A DNA stretch of 64,000 nucleotides from Branchiostoma lanceolatum (taxonomy: Eukaryota > Chordata > Leptocardii > Amphioxiformes > Branchiostomatidae): the NCBI RefSeq assembly GCF_035083965.1, contig NC_089724.1:2198501-2262500 (forward strand). Direction: 5' to 3'. Under the pieces are notes generated by a model that ran no database searches, had not been told where the DNA came from, and worked only from the letters and a program-made list of their open reading frames with translations. This document shows, one piece after another, positions 8,096 through 35,298 of this stretch. The number at the start of each line of letters is the position of its first letter. The stretch's first letter is position 1. The translations under genes were made by a program, and so were the position numbers.

Positions 8096-11000
8096 ATGGA
8101 GCCAGAGTCCAGCCTAACCCCCGCCCCGCCCCTGGGTGTGACCCTTGACCCAGCATCTAGTACAGCCCTGACTCCAGCCATGACCTATGACCCAGGAGGT
8201 CACGTCCTGACCGACCTGAGCTCGATGGAAGACCTGCTGGCTCCGATCAAGACGTCAACGAGAATCAAGGTGAGAATTAAGGTGTAGTCTTAGAGATAGG
8301 TGCATGGTTCACCTGAGGACCTGGACAATAATATATGCAAGACCATGGAACAGTGTTTGTGTTCGCTTCTTCTGGACTTTACTTAGTTTACAGGTTAGCA
8401 TGAAAGTTCATATGTGTTGGTAGAATTCATAGTTTATAGGTTGTTAAGTAGAAATTTGAATGAATAAAGATTGAAGAACAGAAGTTGGAGCAGTTCTAGA
8501 ATGAATAAGAAGCAAAGTTATAGAACAAAATTGTGCTTAAGTTAATGTGTTATGTACAACTATGCCGCAGCCAAATGGCTACTTTTCTTCTGAAAATGAT
8601 TTAATTAGGCTGGTAGAACACAGGATAAAGGAGCTTTCTTTTTACACAACCAGTCACTTCTTACCTGCTGACGTTTTGGTGCCTGTCAAACACCTTCGTA
8701 GCTTCTGACTGGAGTTTTGACTTCTGAAAAGGCTGCATTTCTTACCATCATCATGACTTACATGGCTGTAGATTCAAATTTCCTCTGAATCGTTTGTGAA
8801 ATGGAGTTTGTTTATGATTGTGTGTTTATTTGTTTGTCTTGTTTGATTCTCGCCAGTACACGTGCCTGAGCGTGTCACGCCGGTTCATCAGCCTGGGCGC
8901 CACCACGGGGGGTCTGTACCTGTTCCACCGGGAGAAACTCAAGTGTCTGCAGCTGCTGGCCAATAAGGTACTAGTTACACACCGATACCCTACCTTCTGC
9001 TCAAGTCACAATGTCATACCTGTACAGGGATCTCCACAGAAATTAAGATGGTGCTAGAGGTAAAACTCCCCAAGGGCAAGGTGGTAGGCTACAGTAGATG
9101 GTCCAGGCAGGGACATGGCCCCCGCCCTGGGGTGGATCCTCTAGCATTTGATGCCTTTTTCAAACACAAATATATTGGAGGCCTTGGAGTTAAGTTTTAC
9201 AGCTGTACCTCTTACCTAACAGTGCATTCAAAAGTAACATGTGGCTAGTCTCCAAGAAGATTTTGGGGAGGTTTATTTGGTCGTCATGTTTGCCTTGTTG
9301 TCTAGATCTCTTTCTGTGTCAAACCACCACCCTAGAAAGACGAAACAATCTAACTTTTATACTTTTAGTAAGTACCATGCCATGAAAATATTCCATAATG
9401 AGTAACAGGAAACTAGGGTGTACACGTATGCCTGTAATGTCCTAATCAGTTCTTCACAGTACATAGTATTTACTGCCACAATATTGCACACGATAATCCC
9501 TGTGTGGCTTACCTGTCCCTAGGAAGGAGCCATCACCATGGTAACCTCTGCGCCTGACGACAATCTTGTTGCCATAGCAACCAGGTAAGCTGTTTCATTG
9601 GTTTGTGAACTGGATGCCTTAAGGAGTTCTGTGTCATTTGTTTGAAAGTAATTCTCAGCCTAAATAAGCCACAGGTGATTAGATCTGAGCCTGTCTTATA
9701 GATAGGTTGGTTCAGTATACTGTAAGTCTGGACATTTTCACAACAGTTTTAGCTGCATGGTTTTCATGATCACCTGTCGACCACAAAATCAAGTACGTGC
9801 TACATTTGAATCATATTGCTAACAGTACTGTAACTGTAATTAGCATTTGTAGATCTTATTGAATTCACTCAGTGACACTCAGTTTTTTAGATGTGATGGC
9901 CTTGAATTAATTCATGTACAACAGAATTATGAAAATTAAATGAGAAGATATGCCAAATGAGAGTTACTGATTAGAAGCAATTGGATAAGATTTTGAAACA
10001 GCCATGATTACTTGAGCAACTGCCATACAATCAAACATGTAAGGCTACACTGTATGCTGCCATTTAATCTGTTGTTTACACGTATCTTCCCTCTTCTTAA
10101 AACAATTGTGTAGGAGTTTTTGTTTTACAATGTTGTCAGAGGATGTCATTATAACTAACTACTTAGATCGTGTATTATCTAAATTCATATTAAATGTGAT
10201 GACTTGACTAGCAGGGTTAGCCCTTAGTAATAGCTTTCACTAGTTGGGCAACCCTGGCATGTAAATACAATGTACATGCTGAACCAATAAACAAATAAAT
10301 AAAATGTGTCCTTTGTCCCCAGCATTCGGGGAGGGACCATCTAATAGAGTTGCGCAGTAGAGTGCATGCTGCATACCCTTTAGTATTTTGCTAAAAATAA
10401 TTTTGTTGCTGGTCAAATGTTGGTCAGAATTGTCCAGTTTTCTGCTAGGGAGGACAGAAGAATGTGAATTTTAAAAATCTGGCCAAAATAGGTAATTTTT
10501 GTCATGTTTTGACCTCAGATTGACATCTGAACCCTTCTCTTCTGGTTGGACTGATATATTAGGATGGGGGGTGAAATCCTGGTCTCATCTGAAACTTCTG
10601 TCTTTAGCTCGTTAGAATGCTGGAGTTGGACTCCTGCTTTTTCCACCTAAAGCAACCTGACAAATCCAGCTTTGCAGGGGTGGTAAAGATTTGAGGTTTG
10701 AAATGTAGATACATGTGTTTTTAAGTGATTGTTTTTGACGGCTTATCCATGTGTGGCATAGGTAAGTCCATTTACTGGTCCCTCCCCATACATAGACTTC
10801 CTGCAGGACAAGGTTTTGATACTTTACTGAATGTGTTATTTGTCCCCAGCCGCGGCCTGGTCGTGGTGTGGGAGCTGAACATCGAGAGGCGAGCAAAGCC
10901 GGAGCGGCTGCGGATCTCGCCGGAACACCGCGGGAACACCGTTGTGTCGTTGCAGTGGGACGACAAGTCCTCACGTCTGTTCATCGGGGACGACACGGGC

Positions 11001-14000
11001 AAGGTGTCGGTGGCAAACGTGCCGTCTTCTGGGAAGGTACGCTTTTGTCCATGTTTGTTTGTATTTGTTTGTATTGCATACCCGGTAAACCGCATGAAGG
11101 CGTAACACACCAGGTTTGTACTGAAGAGTACAAGCTGCATACATGTATCTGGACAGATTTATATGATCCACACACACCGGGAAGGACCCCCACTCTTTTT
11201 GATAAGTGTGTTAGGTTCTTTAACGTGCTTGAGGTGTGGCTCTCCTCAAACACGGGACCTCCATTTAACGTCCTATCCGAAGGACGTCCCTAACCGAAGC
11301 TAGGTACTCATTTTCACCTGAGTAAAGTGGGGGAGGTTGTGTAAAGTACCTTTCCCAAGGGCACAATGTCAACGGGACAAATCAGGGAACCCCGGATTCG
11401 AACCCGGTACCTCTGGGTTCTGGGGCCAAACACCCTGGCACTACCCCACCGCGACGCCACGAATTATACATGTAACTGTTCAATTTCTAAAATCTTGAAA
11501 TACAGCATATTAAGTTTCTAACAGGGTACTATTCTAACAATTGAGAGGTGTTTGCTATTAGCTACAAAGATGAGATGGACAAGTCACTACATGTGTTGAA
11601 CTCTAGATGTGCCAGGCAAACTTGTATGACAGTGTATTATTATCAGAGGCTGGGACAAATGTTCGTATATAAAGCAGGACAGATACATGTACATGTACAT
11701 GTACACAGCTCAAATATAGTCATAGTGATGAAGTCAGGCTAGCCGATAGGGCTCTAGGTTAATGTTTACTTCCTGACCATTTCCAGGCCAAATGTCTTAC
11801 TATCTGAAGCCAGAGAAAATGCATGTATCAAATTTTATAGGATAGATTTAACTTCTAGGTTGTGAATTTAAAAATTTTTCCAGGCTAAAGGGGTCTTCAA
11901 ATTGTTACCTGTGTGATGCACTCAGGTTGGGTTATGACCTCCGAACTCATGTCGTAAACCGTGCAATTAATTGTGAGTTTGTTCCTGACATTTTCCAGGC
12001 TAAAGGGTTCTTCAAGGTGCCCACGGAGCTCCTCCTGACAGCGGACTCCAGCGTGGTCCAGATGGACTTCGCTAACGAGCGCCTGATGGTGTCGACTCTC
12101 ACCAGGTGTTACCTGTGTGACACACTCAGGTGGGGTCACGACCTCTGAACTTATGTCATAAGCCTTGCAATGGTAGTATGACCTTTTCTAGCTGGTCATG
12201 TTCGTTGATCAGTAACAGACCACTTTCCAAAATCCAGGGTGTTTGGGCAAAGACGAGGGTCGGGCGGTAAAATTTGTACCTAAAAGATAGACTGAATTTA
12301 TTTCCTATATTTTGAGCATGTGGAACATCTGTTATGCCAATTTAAACTAACCAGTTTGCTGGTCACTGCCTTCGGGCAAGTGAGGAGATTATCTCCTCAC
12401 TCATTCTGTGGAGGCCCCGGGAAAAAAACATGATCCAGAAAGCTGACTTTCACGAGGGCTCTATCTAGAGACACCTCAATTCACATGGAAGACCTAAGTA
12501 CGGCCATGGCAGATAGACTGATGTGGTTGGAAGTCGTGCATGGACTTGTCCCGTCCCCCCTGGGGGTTGACCGATGATGATGATGATGATGATCTGTTTT
12601 CTCGCTGTTTTTCCAGGGAGAAGTTCTGGCATGTTGGGAAGAAGCTGCGAGACGGGAAGTTCGGGGCGTGTTTCTTCCGCACTTCAGCGGGCCAGGTTCC
12701 CGCGATCTACTCCGCGCGCCCGGGCTCCAGGGTGTGGGAGGTAGGTTCAGCTTCGTTTATGGCCTCGTCTACTTATATTGGTCATCGTTACAATTCATAT
12801 TTATTTATTACTCATTTCTCCATCAAAGTACATAAGCAGGGAGAACAGCATTCCCTCTGAATTGGGTACCGTTTGTTACAGTCTTCATTAAAATCATCAT
12901 TAATGCACAAAGACAAAAACAGCTGTTAAAAAATTCACAACATTACTTCAAGTCAAGTCATAGTTAAATCCTGATTCACATCAGCAACTTAGCTATGGCT
13001 AAACTGTCCTATATGAGAAGTCTCTGCCACATAATAATAAAAACACAATCTTACGTTAAGTTAGTCACTAAATCTTTACCTTGTCTCCAATACTCTAATG
13101 ATAAAATATATTCATCAACTATATAATTATAGTATTAGAAACAATTAGGTAGCGCTTTCAGTAAGGACAATTGGTTTCCAACTTGAGGGTAGTCTTATAT
13201 ATTATGTAGAACTTAGAAGAAATATGGAAATTTAATGATAAAAGTAATAATAGATACTTACTAAAAGTGATAGTATTACTTGATACTGAATCGTTGAGAA
13301 ATGATAACAGTTTATTATCAATATTATTGAAAAAACTTTACAAAAGAGAAAAATTATTCCACTCACCCATTGTCAGGCATCATTTTTTTGTTCTTTGTAT
13401 TCCGTCAGATAACAGTGATTTTTTCTCCTCAGGTTGATTTTGAAGGGAACGTGTTGAACACCCACCAGCTGAAGAAGCTGTTAGCCGTACCACCGGCTCC
13501 CGTCATCTCCAACAGGTCAGGGCATTTCTATTGTCACAGTTTAGGTTTGCTGCTCAAGGTACTTTTGCTCTGCAGGGTGGTTGAGAATAATCTCCAAGCA
13601 GATGTAAGGATCTGACTCATTTTTATAGTGCTGCGTTTTAGTCTTGAATTTTCGTGCGTCTCTCATAGGACGAGAATAGTACTTAAAATGTACTAATATC
13701 AGAAAACTAATGGTAAGAATAACTATCAAAAATAGGTGTTAACATGTAGAGAATGAGCCTTTAAAATCATTCCATTTTCCTGTGCTACAGATATGAGCCC
13801 AAGTTCCCTGCAGCAGGATCCACCTTCCCTCCACAGTCTCTCACCTTCTCCAGGATTCTCATGTTCAAGTAAGTCATTATAAATCAACCTCACTCTAACC
13901 CTAACCCTTAAACCCTAACCTTAACCTGAACTCTAACCTTTAAACCCTGACCCTAACTCTGACCCTTCACAGTCTCTCACATTCTCCAGGATTCCCATGT

Positions 14001-15369
14001 TCAAGTAAGTCATTATAAAACACCCTGACCCTAACTCTAACCCTGACCCTAACTGTTACCCTCACCCTAACCCTGACCCTACCTTTAACCTGAACACTAA
14101 TAACCCTGACCCTAAACTAAGCCCTACACCTGATCTAAGCCCTACAGTCTCTCACCTTATCCAGGATTCCAATGGTCAAGTAAGTCTCGGGAAGGATACA
14201 CTGTAAACAACAAGGATCATAATGGTGTAGAAATAAAAGATAAAAAATCTACAACTTTACCATTTGATTTATCACCTTCAATTTGTTTCTCTGACGTTTC
14301 CAAATGCAAAATATCAAAACAAGCATTAGCATCATTCACAAGTTTTTCACTGATTGTCTTTAGAAACTTTCAAGCCTAATGCTCTTCACAAAGGTAGACA
14401 TGTACAAGTCATGTACATTGTATAAACCTGACTGTCCTCACATTAACTTTTCCCAGCAACCGTCTGCTGCTGACGTGGACCCAGCAGGGACTGTACATTA
14501 TAGACCCCGCCAGGGTGCAGCTGGTCATGTGGACTGACAAGTTCAAAGGTGAGACTAAAACCATGGCAGCATGCAATATACATATGATTGTACATCCCCA
14601 AACTGGACTTTCTGGAAGTGAAAACCTCTCTAATCTTTCATGTTGTAGCTGTACCCCCAGTTTCTGTTTTTTGTTTGTTAATAGATGACTTATATAAACT
14701 CTATAGTTTATCAAATTCATTTAGTTTCACAGGTAGTTAATTTTGCAGCACATGTACATGTAAATTTTTTGAAGTGTTTTAAAAACACTTTGCATGAAAC
14801 TATCTTAAAGTAGTAATACAGTGGAAACACATCGGGGGAAATAAAACCCCGCAAACGTTTCAAAACAAACATTATGTTGGATAGAAAAGTTTTTGTACAA
14901 TGGTTGTTTTATCCACACCGACATTTCTGTGACCATCTGTCACCTAACTCAATTATAACTTGTTCACATTGCACTGCAGCGATACATTGTAGGTGTCACT
15001 GCTTATAGATGCAACTTCCAAACGCAAATTATCTGCACAGGTGCTGACAGACAGCCACCGAATCCTCAGTGTGAATAAATCAAACACTTGGTTGTGCACA
15101 GAGAATTCTGTTGTCTCATGACAAACCAAACTGATGAAACTATTCACAAAGGCATACATTCTGTGTACAGTGTTTCTTATTACACGCATGTCTAACCTTC
15201 ATCGACATATATGATCATGTTGTTTTCAGACATCTCTGATGTGAGGTGCTATAAGAACGACATGTACCTGTTCCACGCCGACTCCCGCGTGTCGCGCCTC
15301 TCCCTGCTCGCCGTGGACAAGTGCGTCGGCAAACTCTTCTCCAAGCAGATGTGGAGACTGTGTGCGCAG
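8096..15369 (+). CDS. HPS5: HPS5 exons 1-10: N-terminal beta-propeller
   Basis: Exons 8096-8269, 8857-8967, 9523-9584, 10850-11036, 11999-12129, 12617-12740, 13433-13515, 13791-13868, 14457-14548 and 15230-15369 encode residues 1-394. WD40-like strands are visible ([60 protein letters not shown]). Splice phases agree at every join. The introns hold a SINE, a MITE piece and duplicated exon fragments, listed separately. Confidence 0.92.
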
Positions 15370-18300
15370 GTTAGTAAAACTTCCATGCAGGGAGGATGGA
15401 ACATCATTCTGTAAAGTCCTGATGCTCATGTTGCTGTCAACATGTTAACAAGCTTCTGCCATATTTGTTAATCGTTAGAAGGTTGCCAAGTTTCAAGATT
15501 GCTAGAGACTACAATCATGACAGTAGAATATTTCACTTGAAAATCTCCCATATCACACTGGAATAGCTCAGGAACATTGGTCTATTTTTAAAAATTATGT
15601 GATGATTGAGAGAACATCTGGTGCATCACTGCTGAACATGCAATTCGTGATTTAGAGCTTGCAGACTTGTCAGAAAATCGATTTTCGTGCAGTGTGACAG
15701 GGGCATAAGGAGCAAACAGTATATACAGAAAACAAAGAGTCGACCCCACAATGGGAAAAGCAGACTGAGTAGGAATGACTCATTGCAATGTCTTTTTCAA
15801 GCAATTGATAAAGTCAGGGTAGGGTAGGAAATTATGAAGTTTATGTTGTCTTCAATTAGCACTGTGCCTTAGTTCACCCTAAGATGTGGCCTATAAAGTA
15901 TCTGTATTATTCTTAAGTTACAAAAAAGGTCATTGCTGATCATGATTTCCTCCAGGTGTGCTGCCACTACCAGCCGTCAGTCATCCCCATGAAGGCACGG
16001 CGGGCAGTGCCGGTCTCCATGGTAACGGAGCTGCGGCAGCATCTCGGCACGATGGACGACGCGGACGAGCTGCTGGACCAACTGGAGGAGCTTCTCAACA
16101 GGTATGGAAGGAACACGGAAGTGGAGAATAAAGTTTGCAGTATCTGTATATTGTGTTTAACCAGTACAACTGTCCTTTGGCGTAACACACCAGCTCCTGC
16201 ATCTGTGTTTGTGTAACCAGACGGTATAACCACCCTTCAGGGTTACACACGTACCGTCGTACATCCAGTTTCTGATGTGCATATTGTTAGCTAGTATAAC
16301 CGCTCTTCGGTCCAATGGACCAGCTTCTGTATCTGTATAGCCGTTATAACCGCCTTTGTGAATTCTGAATAAAGCTTCAGCTCTTCCATTGTTTCTATGT
16401 CAACCAAAAAGAGATTAAACATTAACTGTTACAGTTATAGATCAAGTTACAGTGTGTTTCTATCCCCCAGGATTGAGCTAAACGTTGACAGCACGAGCTC
16501 CAACCAGAGCAGCGGTCGCTCCAGTGTCAGCTCCATCGGGAGTGTCAGCATGCTCCAGTCCGGGATCTACCAAGTCCACAGCCGGCGGGGGAGTCAGGAG
16601 TCTGTCGACAGCCTCCCAGAATTCACCTGGGCCGAGGAGGAAGCAGGGCAGGATGGGATAGCCAGGCCCAAGTTTGACCTTGTCTCTGATGCTCTGGCGA
16701 CCTCTGCGGAAGAAGGAAAAGAACCTGGCCTTCTTCCTTCCTTGCCTTCTTCACAGGAGACAGCAGCTTCTGCAAATGAAGTGGTTGCCTCAACACAAGA
16801 CAATGTAGAAAGTCTGGAAAGTTCAGTTTTATCACAAGGGAAAAGAGAAGGTTTAGAAAATGTGGAAAGTTTGTCTTTGGTGCAGAACGAGCAAGCTGCA
16901 ATCATTGAAAGCGAGAGTAGCGCCTCTGACCCGGAAAAGACCAGCATGCAATCCTGCGACAGCGGAAACAGTGACGGCACGAACGTCTCCCCAAGGTCGG
17001 GATCCAAGATGGCCGCCGGCGAGACAGAGGTCGCGGGAGCCAGCGACAGCGGGACGGGAGAAGAGGCTCTAGAGGAAGACGCTCAAACAGTCCCTGACTC
17101 ACTCACTATCCGGTTTAACCTCTTAACAGACTTTGAAGCCACAGAAACCACAGAGGCAGCCCAGATTTCTGATAAATACCAGAAGTTTTCCCAAGAAGTC
17201 CCCGTTGATTCCATGCCACTGGTTGCCATAGAAACAACAGGTACCAACAGCCATGAAACCCCAGAACTGAAGATGACACAGAGCGAGGATGCCAAGGGTA
17301 AAGGTCACAGGTCAAAGGAGGTGAAGGGTCAGAGGGCACTGCTAGACAGGTTTGCGAATGTTGACCTTGAGGGTGATGAGTTGGTGGTGCAGAGAGAAGG
17401 CAGACCCATCAAGGGGAAGAGGAAGAAGAAGAAGAAAGCTAACAGTGCAGGTACATGTAGGAAGGGATACTCAGCGCTTCCTTAAATGTCAGGAATTCTT
17501 ATCTAAATGAACCTTTTTCCTTATCATTTCTTACTATTTCTGGCTTTCCTTGCAGTTGATAAATGATACATAATATTTTAAACCTTTAAATTGTATACAT
17601 ACTATTAGTTACATATTATTTTTATGACATTGTGATGATTAAACTTTGCACCTTACATTTAGTTATTACTTATCATAACTTGCCCAACAGTGGTATCATG
17701 AAATTTTTTCCTGACCTCACATTTAATTTTTTTTTAAATTTCTAACCATCTTCTTCTAAATCAATTTCAGACATTTCCTACCTGTCCCTATCAGAAGGCA
17801 CAGCAGTGGACTCACCTCCATCTGGTAAGTGGACTAACATAATATTGTACATTTAGTGGTGTTATGTACATGTATTATTAATGCCAGATTAAATTATTTG
17901 CTAAATATTTTACATTATAGGAGGTGCTGGGTATACATGTGTATGTAGGTGCAACATCCTATTTGACTATTGATTCTGGGACGCTATTTGTATTGCCTAA
18001 AATTATGGAATTCAGCCAGTCTAACTTACAATTTTATTATTTTGCTGCAATGTTGTTTTCATGTGTCAATGTACCAATTTGTTGATAAACTAATTTATAT
18101 AGTATACATTTTAACTTTATGTAGTATGTTTCCTATAAATGTGATAGGTATACAATGTAATTTATTATTCTCAAAAAAATACTTGCATATTCCAACTAAC
18201 TTTAGCGTGACGCACACTTCATCATTGCCTTGTTCTTCAGATGATATAAGTCCCAAACGGACAAAGAGTTTAGATGCAACATGGGGAAAAATGAAAGGTT

Positions 18301-21300
18301 TGTCAGACGATCGAGTTTGAAAGATGATTGAAAGAATTTAGTAACGGAAATTTGACAATCACAGGTAAAAAATTATCCATTGATGATTTCTAATCAATCA
18401 AAGCAACCAAGCAATTTTAAAAAATCTATCAATAAACAGGAAAATTTCATAATTATCATTAACAACCTATCGTCAATTAAACCAGCTTTCTCATTAACTA
18501 AGCAGTCAACCTGCCAGGCAAATAATAATCAATCCACTTCTTTTATGTACAGACCAACCAATCTTTAGCCAATCTAAGTTCAGTAGCTATGTACCTACGA
18601 GCCTTACAAACATTTTAAGGCTACCACAAATTCTGATTTAAAATCAGGTTTAGCTAATTGTATTTTTTTCAAAATTCACAAATGTTGAACGGCATCATAA
18701 AAAATCACTAAAAAGACAATCACTAATATAGTTAGAAATCTGAATTCTCTCCAAAAGACAGTTACCAAAAGCAGAACCCCTCAAAGGCACCTTCCAATTT
18801 GATTGAAAATATAACTTACATGAACATGTACATTACATAAGCCTCAAGTATCAAACCTCTGCACGTTAAAGAACTCACTTATCAAGAAAAGTGTGGCCAA
18901 AAACGCAAGCTGTAGCAAAGCCGCATTGCACTACCACTAGCTACTTGAAAAAGCATCATGCTTCACCTCAATTGAGGATGACTGCTTTCTCTTTTTTACA
19001 TGTAAGGAAGTAGTCTTACGTTTTGCCCTGACCTTTGCCCTGACCTTTGCCCCAGACCTGCGTTCGGCGTTCCAGCAGAAGATGAGCACGCTGAAGACGG
19101 GACGGATGTCATCTGACAGCGACACTCCTGAGGGCGGGGCGACCCCTGAGCTGTCGTCGTCACCCGTGGTGCAGCAGCAGCTCAAGGTCATGAAGGACAA
19201 GTAAGGGCGTTTGCTCTTAGAGAATTCTGAAGTTCTTTGAATTGAAAACTTTTTACAATCTACTACCTGCTAGACACTCCAAAATAACTATGTTTTATTT
19301 TCATTATCAAGTTTTTAGCATCTTTTAATCCATAGGATTTTGAAATTTGAAGTTTACTCAATCTTAACCAGTACTCAGTGGATAGCCCTTTAACCTTCAA
19401 TATTTTTAGCAAAATCTTCACACAGACATTTACTACATGTACATGTAGGTATTTATATCATTGCTACAGTTAAGTGCTACATGTAGCTCAAAAATATTTA
19501 CACTTACAGACTGTCCATCAGACTGCAAGACTCGCACAGCTAAGACATTCACCTTGTTTCCTTCCAGCTTGTCTATGAGACTCGCAGTACTGTAGTAAGT
19601 CTTAAGACATTCTCCATGTCTCCTCACACTCACAGGTTGTCTAGAAGAATTTTAGGACTGAGACACAATAAGACCAGTTTAACATCAAAGACATTTGCCT
19701 GGTCTCCTTCCTTGGCAGGTTGTCCACACGGCTGCAGGGCTCGTGCAGACTTGTCTAAAATCTAAGACATTCACCCTAAGTCTTAAGACATTAACCATCA
19801 TGTCTCCTTACAGGTTTTCTTACTAGTAAGTCTTGACGTTTCCCTTACTTCTTGGCAGGTTGTCTACGAGACTTCAGGACTCTCGCAGTAAGCTGGCCAC
19901 CAAGTCCAAGTCTCTGATGAAGGCGATTCAGGAGAGCGAGCAGATGGGACGCATCAGGCAGACCATGAGGAGACCTGACATGCAGGCAGACAGGGGAGAT
20001 GAGGTGGGATATGGATGTGTTTTAGGGTGTAGGGTTCTGATACAGGAAAGTGAACAGATGGGCCGCATCAGGCAGACCATGAGGAGACCTGAGGCCCAGG
20101 CAGACAGGGGAGATGAGGTGGGATATGAGTCTGTTTTAGGGTGTAGGGTTCTTGTACAGGAGAGCGAACAGATGGGACGCATCAGGCAGACCATGAGGAG
20201 ACCTGACATGCAGGCAGACAGGGGAGATGAGGTGGGATATGGATGTGTTTTAGGGTGTAGGGTTCTGATACAGGAGAGTGAACAGATGGGCCGCATCAGG
20301 CAGACCATGAGGAGACCTGAGGCCCAGGCAGACAGGGGAGATGAGGTGGGATATGAGTCTGTTTTAGGGTGACTGTAGGGTTCTTGTACAGGAGAGTGAA
20401 CAGATGGGGCGCATCAGGCAGACCATGAGGAGACCTGACATGCAGGCAGACAGGGGGGACAAGGTAGTGTTTTCCATAACATAAGGCCATATGGATGACA
20501 TCTGTGCACGCAATTTTTATCAGTACCAAAGAAAATGTTGATTATACTGTAGATTGTGCAAAGCAGCTGCAAAATGATCAAATATGCCGTGAATTGTAAA
20601 AATGATTTTGGAAAACAATACTTAATCATAAAATGTTAAAATCAATTAAAAAATGAAGATGTTAAGAAGTGAAAATGAAGAATCCATTATTCGTTATACA
20701 ACTCTATGTTAGCTGTGATCAGCAGCTGAGGATTAAAAAGTTGGTTGGAAATAGAAAAAAACTAACTTAAAAGAAAAAAAATGATTTTCCTTATTTGTTG
20801 CTCAGGATGATGATGTGTTCGAGGACGACTTGGGAGGTAACCAAGACAACGGCATCTCCATGGTAACGGAGTCAGGAGGACATCAGGAGAGTGAGGAAAG
20901 GAGGAGGGGCGTCGGTCCACGTGTGGATGTCACTGTCCTGCTGCAGGCCACCAGGGAGACGAGGTGGGGATTTTGTTTTTCATCTGTTCATTCTTTTGTG
21001 TTGAAGCTCCTCAGAAAGTGCTGCTCGACGGAAACCTGGCAACGCAAAGTTTAGTGTTTTGTTTAGAATTAGAAAAGATTATGGACAATCTTATAATCTA
21101 TTTCAGAAATCTAATAGTACCCTGTATTTAATTATGAAACATTTCAAGCGGAACAGAGCTTAAGTGGACTAGAATCCTACATTGTGTACGTAGTTTGAGT
21201 CCAACTGCCTTACACCTAAGCTATTCCTTTTAATCTTTTGATACTGTTACTGTGTAGTTTCTGTTAAACAACATCTGATGTAACAGGAAATTTTTTCTCC

Positions 21301-24300
21301 TCCACCCTTAGTGAAAAGTTGAAGGACCCAGAAGTTCTGTTTGCCCCAGACCAAGCAAGAACCGTTCTGTCAGCATGGTTACAGCACCTGGAGACTGCTC
21401 TACAGAACCTCTATAGAACAGTGAGAGAACACAACGCCAAGATCAGGAGTAAGTTAGAGGTGAAAGGGCAGATGTCAGATGTTGTAGATGACATTGTCTC
21501 TGAAAGAACTCCAATCAACGGTTACGCTAATGTTAACAGCATGCAGCAAGGAAAGCAAGAAGATGAAAGTGAAAGCACTGAGTCAAGGACACTTGAAGAA
21601 AAAGAAGGAGAAGGAATGGACGCATCTGTAGTTCTGCATGACAGCGGTGCAGAATGCGACAGTGTACAGGATGGTCAGGAGAAACAGAACAAAGATGTCT
21701 CAGAACACAGAACGTTAGCAGAAGAAGAAGAGCGAATCTTTGAGAACAACGTTGATGGGAAGGATGACACACAACCATCACCGCATGCCAAGACAGAGGA
21801 TGAAGCTCCAGCACTTGTAAACCATGTTGAGACACATTCTCCAGATACGACATACACAGAAGAACACACTCCCAAGAATGCTGCTGGCCATCCCCAAGAC
21901 ATGGAAGATCTTCAAGAAGTTTTCATCCAAGAGGGATTCCACATCTTCGACCCTTTTCTGTTAAAGGAAGAGAGCCATGCGGAAATTTCTGAGCTGGTGA
22001 CTTTCTGCTTTCAGTTCGGTGTCCTTAGGAGCAAGAGTGCTTCATCAAAGGATTTTGCTGTATCCTCAACCATCATTGGACAGGACAGTCCTAGTCATGA
22101 CATTTGCAATCTACCTGACGAATCAGAATCTGTGTTACAAGAAGAAGATGCCCCTGAATCTGACAGGACTTGTGATGGCAATGATAGCTTCTCACCGATT
22201 GGTCCACATAGTAAGGAAGGTCAGCATCTGTCAGCAACAAGCCAATCAGCTTCCTTGTCTCATGAAGAGGAAGAGTGGGACAGGAACGCTGCTCAGTTCT
22301 TGAAGAGTCATTTCCATTTCTTGGACATAGAAGCCGTAAGAAAGACTTTGCAGTACAGAAGAGGACCAAGGACGATAGTGTGGGAGGGACTTATGGAGTG
22401 TCTGCATGGTAGGCACACCGACTTTTTTTTTAGACAACGTGTTGAAGTAATTCAGATGTAGATTGTTATGTCATCTTGTGAGCAAATAAAAATGTCAAGG
22501 TTTTAAGAAATGAATTTACAGCAGCAAAGGTTTACATATTCCCGTTTTACATGTTGTATGTTGAGGTTTAGAACACTTTTGAATTTGGTCTTCATATCCC
22601 TTTTCTCTAGATCTTGGTTCAAATTGTCTGTAGCTATAGCTATAGCTATAGCTAGTTAAGGGGAGTCTTTTTCATTTGATTCTTGACCGTTTTGTTTCCA
22701 TCCAGCCCTGTACTCTGAGGGTGCAGTACCAGATCTCATCACTAGGGGCAATGTGGACGAATGCCTGAAACTGATCAGGACCAAAGAGTTGACAGACGGA
22801 GGGGCTGTTCTGTCCTGTCTGCACAGGTGAGTGTTGAGTAGGTGGAAATAGAAAACAGCAAAATTGATTGTATGATGATGATGGCTGCTTCTTCGCTTCC
22901 AAAGATTACTGGGAAGGTTGTCCACCTCTGCAGGCTCTTCCGTGTCTGTGTAGCCCAATCCTTGATCTGCACACTCTGCTGCAGGCTGGGCATGTAAAGC
23001 CCTGTGTAGGTGGAGACTGGGCAGCAGCAGCTTTTCTTTGGCTTCTCATGATTGTAAGCATTGTTGAACAACATCATCGTCATTATCCAGTCTGGTTTCT
23101 GTATCATTTTACAGTTGTACAAATGTCTTTCAGCTGCACTCAGTCTCTCTACATTGTACATCTTCTTCCACTGTGTCTTGCATCTTGCGAGCTCCCTTAA
23201 GCCCCCCTCTCACTGGACCCGCGGCACGCTGGTGGCGTTGCTGCGTCCTAAACTGGATTTCTGTTATCATTGACTTTATAATGGGAATATCATTCAAAAC
23301 GTACAAGTAAGACCAAAAAGACAACAAAACACACAAAGGTTTAAAGGTTTGTTTTTCTTCATGAAATTCCTTGAGTGCTTTGTCAATTCAATCGGCCGCA
23401 GCGACGCCGCAAGCGTGCTGTGGGTCCAGTGAGAGGGGGGCTTTAGGTCCAGCCTTGGGCATGCTCAGCCTGTAGTAACGTTACCTGTAGCTATAACTTA
23501 CAATGTTTTGGCGATTTGCACACCTTTATGTCTCCCCAGTGTGTTCCTCTTGTCTCCTGAGACCATGGAAGACACCTGTGTACAGCTCTACCCCCAGGCC
23601 CAACACTGGGAGATCTCCATGCTGTTCTATATTATATAATATATATACAGTGTGCCTGGTGCATACATGTACATGCATTTTGTTTATTGATAATGCAAAC
23701 ATGTGTTTCTCCCCAGTGTGTTCTCCCTGTCCCCAGAGCCAGTGTTAGACGCCTGTTTACAGCTCTACCCGCAGGTCCAAGCCTGGGAGGTAGCTCAGAT
23801 CTGTAAGGACTCCCCTCAACACTTCCTGCACTATGTTCACAAGATACAGGCCTTGCCAAGGCACAGACAGTGAGTACGATTTATGTTCCCATTATTTTCA
23901 TTGTGTTTTTTTTTTGGAGTACGGCTGACATGCTGAACTTGTCAAAGGATATGTTAGGGAGACAAGTTCTTGTACATTGCGTATATCGCTGTCATCCTTA
24001 AGTGACAATGTACAATGTCATGTATTTAGAATATTGTTATAGCTCGTTATGCAGTCAATTGTAATGTCTTGTCTTTGTCAGCAGGGCTAGCCCTTTGTAA
24101 TAGCCTCAGGCTAGTTGGTCAGCCCTGGCTGTGTGTCAAAAACAGCCGAACCAATGGAGCATACAGCCTTCCTGTTTAGAAATCTTATTCTGTAACTGTC
24201 TTACCAGCCATTAATTTCTTTCATTTCAAATGTGTTCCTCGTTATTGTTGTCATTCAGTGGTAAAAGATTCTCCTCCTATATTGCTTATAATGCTTTAAC

Positions 24301-27300
24301 AAGTAGCTAAGCCTTGCATCTTACCTATCATGATGAGGTAATTCTAGACTTTTGAGTTGGAGTTTAAGTCCTGATGTTTGTTACAGAGCTGAGTTGCTTG
24401 AGGCCCTGTACAGAGATGAGGCCCTCTTGCACCAGTGGATGGACTGTGCTCTGACTGAAGGGGCTCCTGACAGGGATCTACTATTCACTACGCAGGGGGA
24501 GCCAAGGTAGATGGCATGCTTCTTTTAATTCAAGCCCATCCTTTATGTGTTGTCACAGTCAACAAGCATCGGCCATTCATGTGCTTGCTGATTGCCATAC
24601 TTTGCAAATTAAAGAAGTATTGACTAGATTACTTGTTTTTATTTGGCTAACTGTACATTATGTCTAGTATGTGTTAACAATCATAGGGATGCTTCAGATG
24701 CATTGTAGCATTCTATAACAGAACATTTTGTTATCACCATGCAATAAGTGCTGCTTCAATTCATAGTGCTTCAAGTTAGATGTACTAGACACATGTACAT
24801 GTATGTAAGGCTTTAATGTAAGACACCATTCAATATATGATATGATATAAAGGATGCTCAGTAGCTGTTTCTGTATGCCTGTAGGGGTAATCTTAGTCAA
24901 ACCATCTGTTTCTCCAGGCCAGGTTCTCATCTGTTGCCATGGAAACACGGTGCTGATGTGGATGAGATTCTGACCTGCTACTCCACGGATAGCGAGTCTG
25001 TCCCGCACAACTCCGCGGAGAGAGGGTACCTGATGAAAAAGTGTCGCAAGGCAGGGTTAGTGTTTTAAAGGTTTTGTAACATCTGTCATGTTCTAAAAGT
25101 TTTCAGCTATCTAGATTTTCACCTATCAAGTCAGGACACGTACCACATGTTTTCCTCTGTTTTATTTATTGAAGTCATAATACACTTTGGCCTGGTAAAT
25201 TGTAAACTGAAGGGCAGTGTTACACCATATTAGGAGCTAATTAGTAAATTACTTGAATGACTGTGTATAGTAACACTATTTCAAATATCATCAAACACAT
25301 TTACAGGTTGTTTTTTTTTTACAATGACTTGTGCTGCATTGCTTTAAAATGTTTACCAAATAAGCATGAATCATTCCAATGAATACAGAATAAGGTTGAC
25401 TTTTTATTGCCAACTTCCTATTATAAGGTACTGGCAAGGATACCTGAGGCTGTGTAAGGGGTTTGGCCACAGACAGGAGGCCCTGAGGACTGCAGTGCTG
25501 CTGGGAGATGTGCAACTCCTGGACCCCCAACATGACCCAAGTATGTTGACGCACCTTATGTCATATTTGTATCTAACAGTTGAAATAAAGATGCATGACA
25601 TCAGATGAGTATGTGTCACATATTTCTGCTTTCAGGGTCTTTTCATCAACATGCAGCTTACTTAAAATACTGTAGTTTCAAAAGCTATTTCTGAATGATA
25701 GTTATTGACCTTTTCGAGATCACAGAACTCGCTTATTAAAAACATAGGACTATTCATCAGCCACTGCCTCAAAAGAAGCCACCTCTGCCAGTAACATGTG
25801 TAGAAATATCAGATAGATCTATAGAATTACTTTTAAGTTTAAAAAAAGTTTTTTTACATCATTGTATCTGACAGTACAAAATGTATGTATCCTTGCAATT
25901 AGCCTTTGGGTATGAATTAATCAAATTCTATATTAAGATTGATGATTTTGGATTTGCTTCTCCCAAAACAATTTTTAAGAATCAAGATATTGATTAGTAT
26001 TGTAATATTATATCTATGCTAAGCCTTGTCTTTAATGTCTGTATATAACTATTTACCAGGTGTTCCCCCAAAGTCCCTGGAAGAATGGGAAGAAGTCTTC
26101 AGGCTCATGCTGCAGCTACAGGGAGGTCAAGGGTCGGGAGAAAACTCCCATGGTGCAATATCCTCCCAGGATGCTATGCAAGAAGTAGCAGACCACGAGC
26201 AATCAGTGAACAACGCAGTGCCTTACGACTCTAGCGATGTAACGCCGAGTCCAAATGATAGAACTAGTTTGCCTAATGTGGAAAGGAGGGAAACTTCTGA
26301 TTGGTTACCTCAAGATAGCACTGCATCACAGGAGGGCTGTGATTGGTCACCTAGGATCACATGGGAGGAAGCTGGCAGGCTATTGGTCAGCAGTGTGGGT
26401 CCAGACAAGGGGATTGAATTACTGCAGAGGCTGCCTCTTCCAACGGGATGTTTGTCAGAAGACTTCTACAAGAGCTGCGTGCTGGCAAGCATGATATACA
26501 GGAGACAGAAGTATGGTTTTGCGTTTTTTGTTGCCTCAAAAGTTCTCTAATTCCTGGGAAGTCACTTATTGGTAGTAATATAGTCACACCAGTTCTGTAT
26601 ATTGTAGACAGTGATCACTGTACATAAGGCCCACCTGGACATTCATATACAGTCAAACATGTACGAGTGACCACCTCTGTATAAGGGCCACCTGGCCATA
26701 TTGTAGCCACATTTTGGTGTTCCATGATAGACTACGTATACATGTATTTTCCCCATTGACCCAAGCACATAGAAGCCTGTCTATCATAGCCACCTGTCGA
26801 CAGTAATATTTTTCTTCTAGTCTCTTGGGTGGTCACTATATAGACAGGTTTGACTGTAGCTCAGCCTCATTGCACATAGTCAACTCCTGTCTGAAATGCA
26901 GATATGAATCAGCCTGTGTTGAGATGAAGTTGTTGAGAAGTTGTTTTTCTCCCTTGCCTGTAGGCTGTTGATCCACTCCATGTTGGAGAAGGTGGACACG
27001 TATCTGTGGTCCAAGAGACCAACAACTCTGGCCCCAGAGGTAAGAGTTTTCCCTTCTGTAAGAAGATAAAAACTTACAGAATGATATGTATACTGTCAGG
27101 TTCAGATTTGATAATGCAGCCTCTACTGGGTACTTCAAAATGCAGACTTGAAGTATGTTTTTCTGCAACTTTTATTCAAAGAAATTTTAAATTTCATTTT
27201 CAAAAAGGCAGATTGGATTTTAGTTTTTCTTTGTTGCCTGAGAAGCCAGAACTGACTAACAATTTACTATCAATCTGTGTGTCCTGGGCGGAAATTTAGT

Positions 27301-29351
27301 TACTTCATTCTATGCCACCGAGTTTTAGTAACAAATGTCATGCTCTATCATACTATAATCAATTACCAGCTAAGTTCATGTTGTTAATATACATTTTGTA
27401 TCTTACCCGAAACACAACCATGATCCCATCTTTTCAGTTACAACGGTTACAGTACGAACTAAGATATACAGAACTTACTGAATGTTAAAACCTTTGTGTT
27501 CCCCAGCTGTACTTTGCCATGCAGCAGGAGAAACTTGCCCTACAGGCCCAGAGAAAAGGAACACCTGTCTCACTGGATCGCAGTCTGGTATGTGTGATTC
27601 AGTTTTTATTAACTAACCATAAAAGTCATGTAGCTTCAGTTTGTAATCATGTCATCATGTCAAATAACTGAAATACTGGGGACTCGGTGATATTATAAAG
27701 TGGAAAATGAGATTTTTACTGTAATGTTGTTTTGAGATGGAATGTTTTAAGGGTAGTAAAACAATGGACATGAATAATGATCGCGGTGTTATGGTTTCAA
27801 TGTAGAGAGGTCACCACAAAAATTTATAAGCACTATCAGTGTATTTTAATGTTACACCTGGAATGCTTGAATTTTTTTTATTCATTTTTGTATGACTACA
27901 AAATGTCTGGCAAGTATGATACAGGCAGAAAAACAGTGTTGTAACTTAAATGTAATGTGAATCTGAACAGTACAACCGGTGACAAGTTGAAATTTAGGGC
28001 CTGACTATCATGTTCTTGAAATACAAATCTGGGTATCAAACCTTTTAGACAGAATATGTTTTGATCTGTCATAATTTGTTTCCCCGTACAGTTTGTGCTG
28101 GACCCAAGCAGACTGGAGGGGGGTGTCCAGCACCTGGAAGAGCCTGAGGGACACTGGGGGGTCACATCTGAAGAAAGGTGGGCAGGGAATCAAATTGAAT
28201 GTGAATTTAGATCAGTTCATCCTCTGTGAGGTGACACAAATGTCTCCACATGTCCCTGTCGAGCATGGCAGAGTTGATTTAAACTTAATCTAAATCAAAA
28301 GCTGTTATTTTGATGCATCTATTACGGTGACTGTATACAGTCTTAAATAAGTCTAAGCCCATTAGGGTGTCTTAAAGCACCTCAAGTATGGCTTCAGTCA
28401 AACCTGTACTAGACTAAGTGTAGTACCTGGTCCAGTGATCATCTCTGTATATGGTAACCTGGTCATTGTGGCCACCTTTTGGTGATCCCTTAGATTATTT
28501 TCATATGAATCTACAGTGGCCACCTGTATATATATATATATTTACTGTGACCATTTTCTTCAAGTCATATTAAAGTTTTTTTATTTATTTTTCACAGTAG
28601 ACAAGTTTTAAATTTCCAATTTCCCTCCCACAGTTCCTGTGCAGTGTGCACTTTGCTGCTGAGTGACCCCATCTCGACCTCTGACCCTGGGGTCACAGTC
28701 TTCCCCTGTGGTAAGAAACCTGTTGTTTGTGGAGTGATACCTATTTTCTAAACCTTCTCCCAGCTGTTTAACCCCATTGCCTGTACAAATTTGGTGCTAA
28801 GTGGCTACCTTAGTAGGTCAAAGGTTAAATGCAGGGCTGTCTCCAGGACCCATCCCTCTGTCCCGGGACGGAAATTTGCTTGTTGGGACGGAAAAAAATT
28901 CACCCTTTCCGTCCAAAATGCTGAACGTTATGACTTGAAATTGATGAAAAGGTATCAATGTAAGCTTATAATGACGAATTTAACAACGAAAAGTCAAAAC
29001 ATCGGCTCTCAAACAATGTGTGGGACGGAAAAAAATTCAAAGCTGAAGACAGCCCTGGTTAAATGCATGCAAAAGTTTCAAGTTAAGGACACACAAACTC
29101 CTATGTTTCAAAACATCAGTTTCCAAAACAGGCTAAGTTATTTTTACAATCTAGATGGGATGAGACCTCTTGAATGATTTGTTTTGATCTTACAGATCTT
29201 AGCATTAAAGTCTTTCTGGCAATGTTTCCATACCTGTAACATAACCCTTTGATGTTTTTGTCTTACCCTGTGTTCTCCAGGCCACGCCTTCCACACCCAC
29301 TGTGTACCACAGAGAGGCTGTCTGCTGTGTTACATGGCCAGTCAGAAGTGA
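8096..29351 (+). CDS. HPS5: HPS5, BLOC-2 complex subunit, with C-terminal RING-type finger
   Basis: Twenty-nine coding exons join in frame to 1,816 codons plus stop. HPS5 is a cytosolic subunit of BLOC-2 (with HPS3 and HPS6), which directs cargo to melanosomes and other lysosome-related organelles. Diagnostic segments: N-terminal [37 protein letters not shown] with [41 protein letters not shown] with [25 protein letters not shown]; and [11 protein letters not shown], all colinear with vertebrate HPS5. The start at 8096 was chosen because [15 protein letters not shown] aligns with the human N-terminus and an acceptor lies at 8089. The protein is much longer than human HPS5 (about 1,129 aa) because of acidic, Ser-rich linkers, and it continues past the human C-terminus into a RING finger. 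TECPR2 is the main alternative for the propeller but lacks the HPS5-like C-terminal half. Confidence 0.93.
8606..8730 (+). repeat. Fold-back repeat family, half copy
   Basis: Shares GGTAGAACA, CACAACC, CACTTCTTACCTGCTGACG and the following CACCTTC..CTTCTGACTGGAG block with the copies at 36736-36978 and 60062-60217. The right arm is missing. Lies in HPS5 intron 1. Confidence 0.6.
10208..10305 (+). repeat. Interspersed repeat 3' end, copy 1
   Basis: GCAGGGTTAGCCCTTAGTAATAGC through AACCAATAAAC.. matches 24072-24165 over most of its length and ends in an A/AAT-rich tail, as a retroposed 3' end would. The parent element is not identified. Confidence 0.55.
11078..11460 (-). mobile_element. tRNA-derived SINE
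   Basis: Read on the minus strand it begins GTGGCGTCGCGG, has a B-box GGTTCGAATCC about 60 bp in, and continues through a body (GGACGTTAAATGGAGGTCCCG, AGCACGTTAAAG) shared with 35811-36090 (plus) and 36409-36620 (minus). It ends near GGTTTACCGGGT. Lies in an HPS5 intron. Confidence 0.75.
11874..11967 (+). pseudogene. Decayed partial copy of an HPS5 exon
   Basis: Matches the real exon 11999-12129 at both edges: TTTTCCAGGCTAAAGGG at the acceptor side, then, after an 89 bp internal deletion, TGTTACCTGTGTGA..CACTCAGG and about 40 bp of following intron. The deletion is not a multiple of three and a stop appears, so it cannot act as a substitute exon. Confidence 0.75.
13834..14190 (+). repeat. 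Exon edge and splice donor present three times, with CCCTAA-like filler
   Basis: CAGTCTCTCACCTTCTCCAG.. through the donor GTAAGTCA at the end of HPS5 exon 8 (13834-13880) recurs at 13970-14016 and 14145-14187 with few changes. Between the copies is irregular CCCTAA/CCCTGA sequence. Only the first copy continues an open frame from upstream. Confidence 0.75.
15956..20003 (+). CDS. HPS5: HPS5 exons 11-16: Ser/acidic linker with basic KRKKKKK block
   Basis: Exons 15956-16101, 16471-17450, 17771-17824, 18241-18297, 19056-19200 and 19859-20003 encode residues 395-903. After a short helical piece ([13 protein letters not shown]) and the HPS5 motif [13 protein letters not shown] comes a long low-complexity stretch. 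It ends in [20 protein letters not shown], which resembles the linker of TECPR2 as I remember it. The last exon ends in a basic helix ([19 protein letters not shown]) whose second half is copied four more times downstream. Confidence 0.85.
16160..16370 (+). repeat. Tandem repeat of about 70 bp in HPS5 intron
   Basis: Units containing TATAACCGCCCTTCGG-like sequence, ACACACCAGCTTCTG and ATCTGTAT recur three to four times with drift. A solo copy is at 61368-61400, so the unit is a dispersed repeat. Confidence 0.55.
19505..19858 (+). repeat. Degenerate upstream copies of an HPS5 exon 5' edge
   Basis: The start of the exon at 19859 (GGTTGTCTACGAGACTTCAG) with its acceptor has decayed copies near 19507, 19566, 19634, 19717 and 19811. 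Each has a CAG-type acceptor, TGTC..GAGACT-like sequence and a following AAGACATTC-rich spacer. Confidence 0.6.
20046..20463 (+). repeat. Tandem array of four further 72 bp copies of an HPS5 exon segment
   Basis: Segments 20046-20117, 20160-20231, 20274-20345 and 20392-20463 each encode 24 residues ([15 protein letters not shown] and on). Each is preceded by an acceptor-like ..TACAG and the first three are followed by GAG|GTGGGA; the last ends AAG|GTAGTG. They repeat the 3' part of the exon ending at 20003 at a 114 bp period, with versions alternating A-B-A-B. All are phase 0 to 0, so any copy could be added in frame. Reading straight through meets a stop near 20370, after a 4 bp insertion. 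Whether they are used as exons is unknown. Confidence 0.75.
20806..22408 (+). CDS. HPS5: HPS5 exons 17-18: linker into alpha-helical region
   Basis: Exons 20806-20963 and 21312-22408 encode residues 904-1321. [20 protein letters not shown] and [11 protein letters not shown] align with the human DPLVLF..VLQEWLSHLEK segment. A long acidic stretch follows, then [14 protein letters not shown] (human LAELTTLCLELNVL) and [20 protein letters not shown] (human CQFLKKYFFLLNLKRAKES). Confidence 0.88.
22706..27039 (+). CDS. HPS5: HPS5 exons 19-25: C-terminal helical repeat region
   Basis: Exons 22706-22826, 23717-23869, 24387-24506, 24918-25055, 25428-25540, 26060-26510 and 26964-27039 encode residues 1322-1712. 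Conserved points: [80 protein letters not shown], and [15 protein letters not shown], which is where human HPS5 stops. Helical repeats of this kind resemble those of vesicle coat and tether proteins. Confidence 0.9.
23200..23442. mobile_element. PIF/Harbinger-like MITE
   Basis: Inverted ends of about 47 bp begin AGCCCCCCTCTCACTGGACC, and TTA flanks both sides (23197-23199 and 23443-23445), the 3 bp duplication typical of PIF/Harbinger. 243 bp, no coding capacity, in an HPS5 intron. Confidence 0.7.
23540..23620 (+). pseudogene. Truncated duplicate of HPS5 exon 20
   Basis: Starts with the same acceptor (CTCCCCAG|TGTGTTC) as the real exon at 23717 and encodes a similar peptide ([20 protein letters not shown] against [20 protein letters not shown]). 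Similarity stops after about 80 bp and a stop codon follows with no donor, so it is probably not used. Confidence 0.75.
24072..24165 (+). repeat. Interspersed repeat 3' end, copy 2
   Basis: GCAGGGCTAGCCCTTTGTAATAGCC.. matches 10208-10305. It carries a fuller CTCAGGCTAGTTGGTCAGCC hairpin segment. Confidence 0.55.
26650..26856. mobile_element. CAGTCAAAC-ended MITE
   Basis: Ends are CAGTCAAACATGTACGAGTG on the left and the complement of CAGTCAAACCTGTCTATATA on the right, with TA immediately outside each. Internal GTGACCACC, GGTCACT and GGCCACC blocks recur. A truncated second copy begins at 28395. Confidence 0.65.
27507..29351 (+). CDS. HPS5: HPS5 exons 26-29: C-terminal extension with RING-type zinc finger
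   Basis: Exons 27507-27587, 28092-28177, 28634-28710 and 29281-29351 (TGA 29349-29351) encode residues 1713-1816. A helix ([16 protein letters not shown]) leads to eight zinc ligands spaced C-x2-C-x19-C-x-H-x2-H-x2-C-x5-C-x2-C ([26 protein letters not shown]). This layout is seen in RING-H2-like domains of VPS8, VPS18 and VPS41. The RING is split by an intron after FPCG, and both halves keep phase and all ligands. An E3 or tethering role is inference only. Confidence 0.85.
28215..28275 (+). repeat. 60 bp segment shared with the flank of the LINE at 47 kb
   Basis: CATCCTCTGTGAGGTGACAC and CCCTGTCGAGCATGGCAGAG match the minus-strand sequence at about 47447-47507, just 5' of the LINE reverse transcriptase. 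It may be a fragment of the same LINE family's 5' region or a separate small repeat. Confidence 0.5.
28395..28600. mobile_element. CAGTCAAAC-ended MITE, truncated copy
   Basis: Begins CAGTCAAACCTGTACTAGAC and keeps the GTGGCCACCTTTTGGTG block seen in the copy at 26650-26856. Its right end has decayed into TA-rich sequence. Confidence 0.5.
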
Positions 29352-31002
29352 AAAATGACTTCTTAAAGCCACTTACAGAGGTTTAATTTTTTTTCATTTT
29401 GAAACAATCTTTATAAGCTTTATTTCAATCTTTGTTTGAAATTGGCAATTATAAATGTTTAGATTATGGAAATGGGACCACCATGGGCCACGAGGATATT
29501 TTTACATAATGAGTCAGAAGCCCTTTCAGACACATTATAGGGATTTTAAAATAATTTTTGTCAGAAACAGCAAGTCGACCATTATGATAATCATTTGAAG
29601 ACTATAGTGATGTGTACATTTCATCTCCTTTCTTCAGATCTCTAGAGGTAGACATAGGTTTGTGCAACTGACTCAGTACCAGAAAAGGAATTGGGAAGCA
29701 AAATATGGATCATATTAAGATATTATTTCCTGTGATATAAGATGATATAAAGATATGTATCATTGTACAATTTCCTGATAATTTGTAATCTTAAGTGTTG
29801 TAAGTACTATTTCTAGCAACTTGTTTAAAGTAATTTTACCTGAATTGTGAAGATGTGTACATAGCTAATGATTCATGTAATTATGTTTAACAAAAATTTT
29901 CATATGATCATGACTGCATTGTGTAATATGTAATGGTGTTCTTACCGTTGTGTCAAAAATCGTTGAATGTTGCACTAACTTTATGTTTTCTTAGCTACCA
30001 TTCATATAGGTCTACAAACATGCAATAGCAATGCAACTTTTAGTGATAGTTCTTTTTCCCAGCCTTACAATAGTATCATCACTGAAAAAAAGAATTTAGG
30101 ATTCAAGTGCTAGTTTGATGTTCTGGACAAAAAAAATGGACCAACATCATTGTCCTTTTGTCAACTTGAATTAGAGATGAATAACATATGTCAAGATCCT
30201 TTAATCATCTTCCCTATATGAAAGTTTAAAAAATGACTTGGGGAATCGAAAAAGTTTGTCAGAATCATTATGCAAATTGCTGTTGCTGCTTGTTTCTGTT
30301 TTTTTTAGATCACCACAGGATCGTAGACTCATGGAAAAACAAAACTTTAATTTCAGTGAAAGTCATTTGTTTTTTTATGACTTTTCTATGAATGTAGGAC
30401 ACTCCTTCCTTTATCTAAACAAAAGGCACATATTTTCCCTGTATCTTTATGGTCTTTGCAGACCAATTGTACTTGTGATACTGTGTGCATTTTATTTGAT
30501 TGTGTGCCAAATTGTATTCATGTTTAATGTGCAATGGTTTCAATCTTGGTATTTATAAAACAGCTTTGTTCTCATATTGAATTATTATTGAATTTTCTTT
30601 GTTGCTCTTGAATACACATGAGTCTCAATGATACTATCTGATTTGTTTTTCATTTATTGCCTGTGTGAAGTAGGTAGTGCTTTTGTTGTGGGTGCGTGGG
30701 AGTTTGGAGGCAGTGTTTCCGACTTGACCAACATAAATCAGGAAGCTATGGATGGACTGCAATGTTTGTCATGTAGCTATCACAGTCCATTTATACGCAA
30801 GGACAAAGCTCACATCATTACTTATGGGGTTTAGTTATAGGGAAGGCAAAACATCCTTCAGTTAGGATTGACAAGAAACTGGATAATTTTTAATGATGAT
30901 TTATTATCAAAGTCATTGTCAAGATGAAGCTTGTAAACAATACAGCAATACACGTGTCAGCATTGGACCGCAGGTGGCGCCTGGAAGGCCCCTGCTGTGA
31001 CG
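29352..31002. other. HPS5 3' UTR and intergenic DNA
   Basis: No gene recognised. The AT-rich first kilobase is probably HPS5 3' UTR, but I could not fix a polyadenylation signal. A 68-codon plus-strand frame at 30628-30834 has no recognisable features. Lectin gene A ends at 31003 on the other strand, so the two genes converge. Confidence 0.5.

Positions 31003-35298
<4,296 letters not shown>

What the first reader, a model, noticed from the sequence alone, without database searches (positions are those of the whole stretch)
28634..29351. HPS5 with a C-terminal RING-type zinc finger
Seen: after the point where human HPS5 ends (..FLWSQ), four more exons in perfect phase add about 100 residues ending in eight zinc ligands spaced as in RING-H2-like domains. 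Known: the tether proteins VPS8, VPS11, VPS18 and VPS41 carry such a C-terminal RING. Inference: HPS5 may descend from a RING-bearing, VPS-like ancestor, with the finger later lost in vertebrates. This would tie BLOC-2 to the HOPS/CORVET class.
Basis: partly seen in the sequence, partly recalled or inferred. Interest (0 to 1): 0.78.

Follow-up and report, generated by a model that had tools for sequence, protein, structure and literature searches.

The report
HPS5 ending in VPS8/VPS41-like RING finger
In this animal genome the gene for HPS5, a protein needed to build pigment granules and similar organelles, appears to end in an extra zinc-binding RING finger that most resembles the finger found on the lysosome-tethering proteins VPS8 and VPS41, which hints that the two machineries are related.

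Summary
A hand-built 29-exon model (10851-29351, +) stays open and is HPS5 (Pfam Beta-prop_HPS5, 350 bits; TPR_HPS5, 188 bits). Four further GT-AG exons (27507-29351) continue in phase, add 104 residues and end in a RING-H2, C-x2-C-x19-C-x-H-x2-H-x2-C-x5-C-x2-C. A RING so split by an intron occurs once in the window, in 0 of 100 shuffled windows. Of 24,736 Pfam models, the two best for the 51-residue finger are the C-terminal RINGs of Vps41 (30.1 bits, cut-off 30.3) and Vps8 (29.6, cut-off 27.3), 7 bits ahead of the next; within longer stretches both fall below cut-off. Eight ligand-preserving shuffles match neither; three ordinary RING-H2 fragments prefer generic models. The resemblance to HOPS/CORVET is thus specific but near threshold. 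The finger lacks usual E3 features (recalled), so I think it is a docking module, as in human VPS41-VPS18. Descent from a RING-bearing VPS-like ancestor with loss in vertebrates was not tested: no other animal HPS5 and no transcript could be reached. New variant of a known kind.

The parts
10851..11036 (+). HPS5 beta-propeller coding exon (first exon of the model; earlier exons not found)
11999..17450 (+). HPS5 exons 2-9 of the model (rest of propeller and start of linker)
   Evidence: Beta-prop_HPS5, profile 80-328 of 328
18241..22408 (+). HPS5 exons 10-18 of the model (linker, with tandem 114-bp array at 19925-20456, and start of the C-terminal half)
   Evidence: splicing inside the array is uncertain
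22706..26510 (+). HPS5 exons 19-24 of the model (alpha-solenoid); a missed exon between 22827 and 23716 is possible
   Evidence: TPR_HPS5, 188 bits
26964..27039 (+). Last exon with human-like HPS5 sequence (..[17 protein letters not shown]..)
   Evidence: human end from recall
27507..27587 (+). Tail exon 1: 27 residues, perhaps helical
   Evidence: helix only from a very low-confidence model
28092..28177 (+). Tail exon 2: linker
28634..28710 (+). RING exon 1: zinc ligands 1-3 (C, C, C)
29281..29351 (+). RING exon 2: zinc ligands 4-8 (H, H, C, C, C) and stop codon

Best explanation
This HPS5 has a C-terminal RING-H2 finger of the Vps8/Vps41 kind, placed after the alpha-solenoid as in those proteins. 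It most likely works as a docking module: the finger, with the stretch before it, pairs with a partner subunit (another BLOC-2 subunit, or possibly the VPS18 RING of the class C core) and so holds HPS5 in its complex. Shown here: the exons, their phase, the ligands and the specific similarity to Vps8/Vps41 RING models. Inferred: expression as one protein, zinc binding, the docking role. Not shown: age of the finger and loss in vertebrates.
For: HPS5 identity. Four in-phase exons to a stop, good splice sites, GC contrast. Split RING found once in the window, in 0 of 100 shuffles. Finger alone: zf-RING_Vps41 30.1 bits (cut-off 30.3), zf_RING_Vps8 29.6 (cut-off 27.3), next best 22.5. Neither model is listed for any of 8 ligand-preserving shuffles. 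Of 3 ordinary RING-H2 fragments, 3 prefer generic models; Vps41 scores 21.8 and 19.1 for two and is not listed for the third, and zf_RING_Vps8 is listed for none. Function by analogy: human VPS18 and VPS41 RINGs form a 1:1 heterodimer needed for VPS41 to join HOPS (PMC5651818: abstract, first part of the Results and passages seen); in the CORVET structure Vps8 attaches through C-terminal helices and paired RINGs with Vps18 (PMC11187117, passages seen). The finger (sequence) has no Pro after ligand 7 (CLLC), no Trp in the 5 residues between ligands 6 and 7, and no Arg just after ligand 8, features that I recall as usual for active E3 RINGs.
Against: In the 129-aa tail (26.6 Vps8, 26.0 Vps41) and the 861-aa C-terminal half (23.5, 24.4) both scores lie below the curated cut-offs. 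The Vps41 match covers only profile positions 3-37 of 52. The finger lacks the Trp two residues before ligand 7 that VPS8 has. Human VPS8 RING alone does not bind VPS18, so not all such RINGs dock by themselves. HOPS/CORVET RINGs are reported to have ubiquitin-ligase activity. By single sequence search of the PDB, E3 RINGs rank ahead of Vps11/Vps18 chains, all at E above 0.04. The last exon's codon score is low and better in other frames, and no AATAAA or ATTAAA lies between 29351 and 31299. No transcript, no orthologue, no structure: the fold prediction was of no use (mean pLDDT 35).
Confidence: 0.6

Rival explanations
1. The finger was added to HPS5 late, in the lineage of this animal, for example by capture of the 3' end of a VPS8- or VPS41-like gene; it says nothing about the origin of BLOC-2.
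For: Only the finger, not the scanned propeller or solenoid parts, matches Vps8/Vps41 models. Vertebrate HPS5 is thought to lack it (reader and my recall).
Against: The tail is spread over four separate phase-matched exons, and its C-terminal position is the same as in VPS8/VPS41. Neither point is decisive.
Confidence: 0.25
2. The RING exons belong to another gene, or are never spliced to HPS5.
For: No RNA evidence; an in-frame ATG lies in tail exon 1; the last exon's codon score is low, and no canonical polyA signal lies in the 1.9 kb after the stop.
Against: Neither tail exon 2 nor the first RING exon has an in-frame ATG between the upstream stop and the exon; phases fit throughout; splice sites rank high; no AATAAA or ATTAAA lies between 27040 and 28568 that would end HPS5 earlier; the eight ligands are intact.
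Confidence: 0.08
3. The finger is an active ubiquitin ligase that marks cargo or subunits.
For: RING-H2 ligand pattern; HOPS/CORVET RINGs are reported to have ligase activity (PMC11187117, passage).
Against: Recalled E2-contact residues are missing (CLLC in place of CPxC, no Trp, no Arg just after ligand 8; sequence); generic RING models score at least 7 bits below the Vps8 and Vps41 models for the finger alone.
Confidence: 0.12

Closest known systems
HPS5 (BLOC-2 subunit; Ruby-eye 2)
   Same: Beta-propeller and alpha-solenoid families Beta-prop_HPS5 and TPR_HPS5 well above cut-off
   Different: 104 more residues with a C-terminal RING; human HPS5 is recalled to end just before them
VPS41 and VPS8 C-terminal RING (zf-RING_Vps41 PF23555, zf_RING_Vps8 PF23412)
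   Same: Best two Pfam models for the finger; both VPS proteins are described as having a C-terminal RING
   Different: No Trp two residues before ligand 7 as in VPS8; only 5 residues between ligands 6 and 7; sits on HPS5, not on a HOPS/CORVET subunit
VPS18 and VPS11 (PDB chains 8dit_C, yeast PEP3 and PEP5)
   Same: RING near the C-terminus; appear among the 54 PDB sequences listed
   Different: Very weak sequence match (E 0.35 to 0.58); human VPS18 has 65 residues between ligands 6 and 7
Ordinary E3 RING-H2 (RNF38, Arkadia, RNF165)
   Same: Weak PDB matches to the finger, CxHxxHxxC centre
   Different: Prefer generic RING models; RNF38 has CPIC and a longer ligand 6-7 loop (alignment)

Membership tests
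HPS5 | HPS5 beta-propeller | tested here: met
   PF23756, 350.4 bits, cut-off 34, profile 80-328 of 328
HPS5 | HPS5 solenoid | tested here: met
   PF23758, 187.7 bits, cut-off 27
HPS5 | Member of BLOC-2 with HPS3 and HPS6 | not testable with these tools
   Needs biochemistry
RING-H2 (C3H2C3) | Eight ligands with RING spacing | tested here: met
   2, 19, 1, 2, 2, 5, 2 residues between ligands
RING-H2 (C3H2C3) | Cross-brace fold binding two zinc ions | tested here: inconclusive
Vps8/Vps41-type RING | Score above the curated cut-off | tested here: inconclusive
   finger alone: Vps8 29.6 against 27.3, Vps41 30.1 against 30.3; both below cut-off in the longer proteins
Vps8/Vps41-type RING | Docks to a partner subunit | not testable with these tools
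   Needs pulldown
HOPS/CORVET subunit | Vps8 or Vps41 propeller or solenoid domain | tested here: not met
   in model residues 1-400 and 918-1778 no Vps8 or Vps41 family other than RINGs was listed at E up to 10 (linker 401-917 not scanned); so it is not filed as a HOPS/CORVET subunit
E3 RING ligase | Pro after ligand 7, Trp E2 contact, linchpin Arg (recalled features) | tested here: not met
   Sequence: CLLCYM, 5-residue loop without Trp; ligase activity itself not tested

The most novel reading that the evidence does not exclude
HPS5 is a third branch of the VPS8/VPS41 type: BLOC-2 arose from a HOPS/CORVET-like tether whose peripheral subunit carried a docking RING, and vertebrates lost the finger when the donor after the last shared exon failed (reading through it here gives a stop after nine intron-coded residues), so that vertebrate BLOC-2 must be held together in another way.
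Probability: 0.35. Interest if true: 0.75.

Novelty: new variant of a known kind. Interest (0 to 1): 0.55.

Why it matters
BLOC-2 is central to some forms of Hermansky-Pudlak syndrome, yet its architecture is poorly known, and no HPS5 structure turned up in the PDB copy with the propeller query. A Vps8/Vps41-like docking finger on HPS5 would give a sequence link from BLOC-2 to the HOPS/CORVET tethers, suggest which end of HPS5 holds the complex together, and make the origin of BLOC-2 testable by looking at HPS5 C-termini across animals.

Tried and rejected
Fold: the 129-aa tail folded alone gave mean pLDDT 35, so no fold search was run. Relatives: four scans with two queries (the last 182 residues; the first 300 residues of the model) in genome contigs and viral contigs confirmed no relative (36, 8, 11 and 1 pattern matches); these collections hold prokaryotes and viruses, so this says nothing about animals. 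Whole genome: none held. PDB: propeller query 0 hits at E up to 10; finger weakly like many RINGs. A 104-aa stretch from the end of the solenoid through tail exon 1 matched no Pfam family, so Pfam does not say where the HPS5 family ends. Papers: ten searches, nine with HPS5 and/or BLOC-2 terms together with RING, zinc finger, HOPS, CORVET, Vps8, Vps41, AlphaFold, tethering or cryo-EM and one on Vps8/Vps41 RINGs, listed no paper whose title or abstract start describes a RING on HPS5. Of full texts I saw only the parts named: passages of PMC9674347, PMC13261697, PMC5592937, PMC11187117, PMC10193976 and PMC5351877, and the abstract, first part of Results and passages of PMC5651818. Subscription papers and sequence-database annotations were out of reach, so prior annotation of invertebrate HPS5 RINGs is not excluded. 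PMC9674347 (passage) already notes that HPS3 and HPS5 resemble IFT-A proteins in predicted structure. Separate-gene and E3 readings were considered and ranked lower (see rivals).

Full report
What is there. The window's + strand carries an HPS5 gene. I joined 29 exons by hand from 10851 to 29351; the introns are GT-AG, the frame holds over all 28 joins, and the model has 1778 residues with one stop, at its end (one search was a first attempt with the wrong starting phase). The exons were chosen by eye to keep the frame open, so the open frame alone is weak evidence; the family matches are the independent check. The start of the gene is missing from the model (the propeller match begins at profile position 80), an exon may be missing between 22827 and 23716, and the splicing inside a 114-bp tandem array (19925-20456) is uncertain. 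None of this touches the 3' end. Pfam gives Beta-prop_HPS5 at 350.4 bits for residues 1-400 and TPR_HPS5 at 187.7 bits for residues 918-1778; residues 401-917 were not scanned.

The extra tail. They add 104 residues. Splice sites scored with a matrix from the 24 upstream introns of my own model rank 2, 8, 1 and 10 of 241 donors and 2, 16, 9 and 1 of 220 acceptors in 26000-29400. GC is 0.53-0.59 in these exons and the one before, and 0.33-0.39 in the introns between them. Codon scores (trained on the 25 upstream exons against the 24 upstream introns) favour the right frame for the joined tail, 0.40 against 0.19 and -0.01, but exon by exon they are 0.37, 0.82, 0.19 and -0.13, against a 95% point of 0.27 in 282 intron and flank windows; in the last exon both wrong frames score higher. 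Upstream exons range from -0.15 to 1.14, but they were the training set. The first RING exon and the exon before it have no in-frame ATG after the last upstream stop; an ATG does lie in tail exon 1. Canonical polyA signals were sought from 26901 to 33000: ATTAAA at 28569 and 29204 (both in introns of the model), 31300, 32031 and 32046, so none ends HPS5 before 28569 and none lies close behind the stop.

The finger. Ligands are C-x2-C-x19-C-x-H-x2-H-x2-C-x5-C-x2-C, with six residues after the last Cys. A RING split near ligands 3 and 4 by an intron with consensus borders occurs once in the window on both strands, at intron 28711-29280, and in 0 of 100 dinucleotide shuffles (the narrower first form gave 1 and 0 of 100). 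The pattern was written after seeing the finger.

Which kind of RING. In the 129-residue tail the best two Pfam models are zf_RING_Vps8 (26.6 bits, cut-off 27.3) and zf-RING_Vps41 (26.0, cut-off 30.3), the next 21.2; in the 861-residue C-terminal half they are 23.5 and 24.4, the next 19.6. The 51-residue finger alone gives 30.1 for Vps41 and 29.6 for Vps8, the next being zf-RING_2 with 22.5. For eight shuffles that keep the ligands in place neither is listed (best match zf-C3H2C3, 16.6 bits). Three fragments of ordinary RING-H2 proteins were scanned as printed, RNF38 with all eight ligands, Arkadia and RNF165 without the last two: their best models are generic (55.7, 41.9 and 43.8 bits); zf-RING_Vps41 is not listed for RNF38 and is 21.8 and 19.1 for the others; zf_RING_Vps8 is listed for none, its fungal relative once (15.2 bits, RNF38). 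Against PDB sequences the finger is weakly like many RINGs: 54 sequences at E up to 10, led by E3 ligases at E 0.044; yeast PEP5 and PEP3 and a VPS18 chain follow at E 0.35-0.58; no Vps8 or VPS41 chain is in the list. So the kinship with Vps8/Vps41 RINGs is specific at profile level but near threshold.

How it may work. In human HOPS, VPS18 and VPS41 RINGs form a 1:1 heterodimer, and the VPS41 RING is needed to join the complex; VPS8 needs more than its RING (PMC5651818). In the CORVET structure, Vps8 and Vps18 are joined by C-terminal helices and paired RINGs (PMC11187117). By analogy, and because recalled E3 contact residues are missing, I take the HPS5 finger as a docking module. [quoted passage not shown]

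What was not shown. There is no expression evidence, no second species and no useful fold model. Only the finger, not the scanned propeller and solenoid parts, links this protein to Vps8/Vps41. Reading through the intron after 27039 gives a stop after nine intron-coded residues, which shows how simply the finger could have been lost, but is no evidence that it was.

Verdict. A real feature in the gene, with a specific and interesting resemblance; interest 0.55, rising if the finger is found in HPS5 of other phyla.

Noticed in passing
19925-20456: Tandem array of 114-bp units (4.6 copies), each with a 72-bp in-phase stretch ([15 protein letters not shown]..) and 42 bp that is either a very short intron or in-frame coding: repeated exon or 38-residue protein repeat in the HPS5 linker.
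   Followed up: partly
23540-23618: By eye, a partial second copy of the HPS5 exon at 23717-23869 just upstream of it.
   Followed up: no
45257-47416 (-): 720-aa reading frame with a reverse transcriptase domain (RVT_1, 140.7 bits), probably a retroelement.
   Followed up: partly
47724-51981 (-): Reading frames with an EGF-like domain (47724-48299) and two F5/8 type C domains (50171-50803, 51478-51981), perhaps exons of an adhesion or secreted protein gene.
   Followed up: partly
54380-55603 (+): 408-aa reading frame made of C2H2 zinc fingers.
   Followed up: partly
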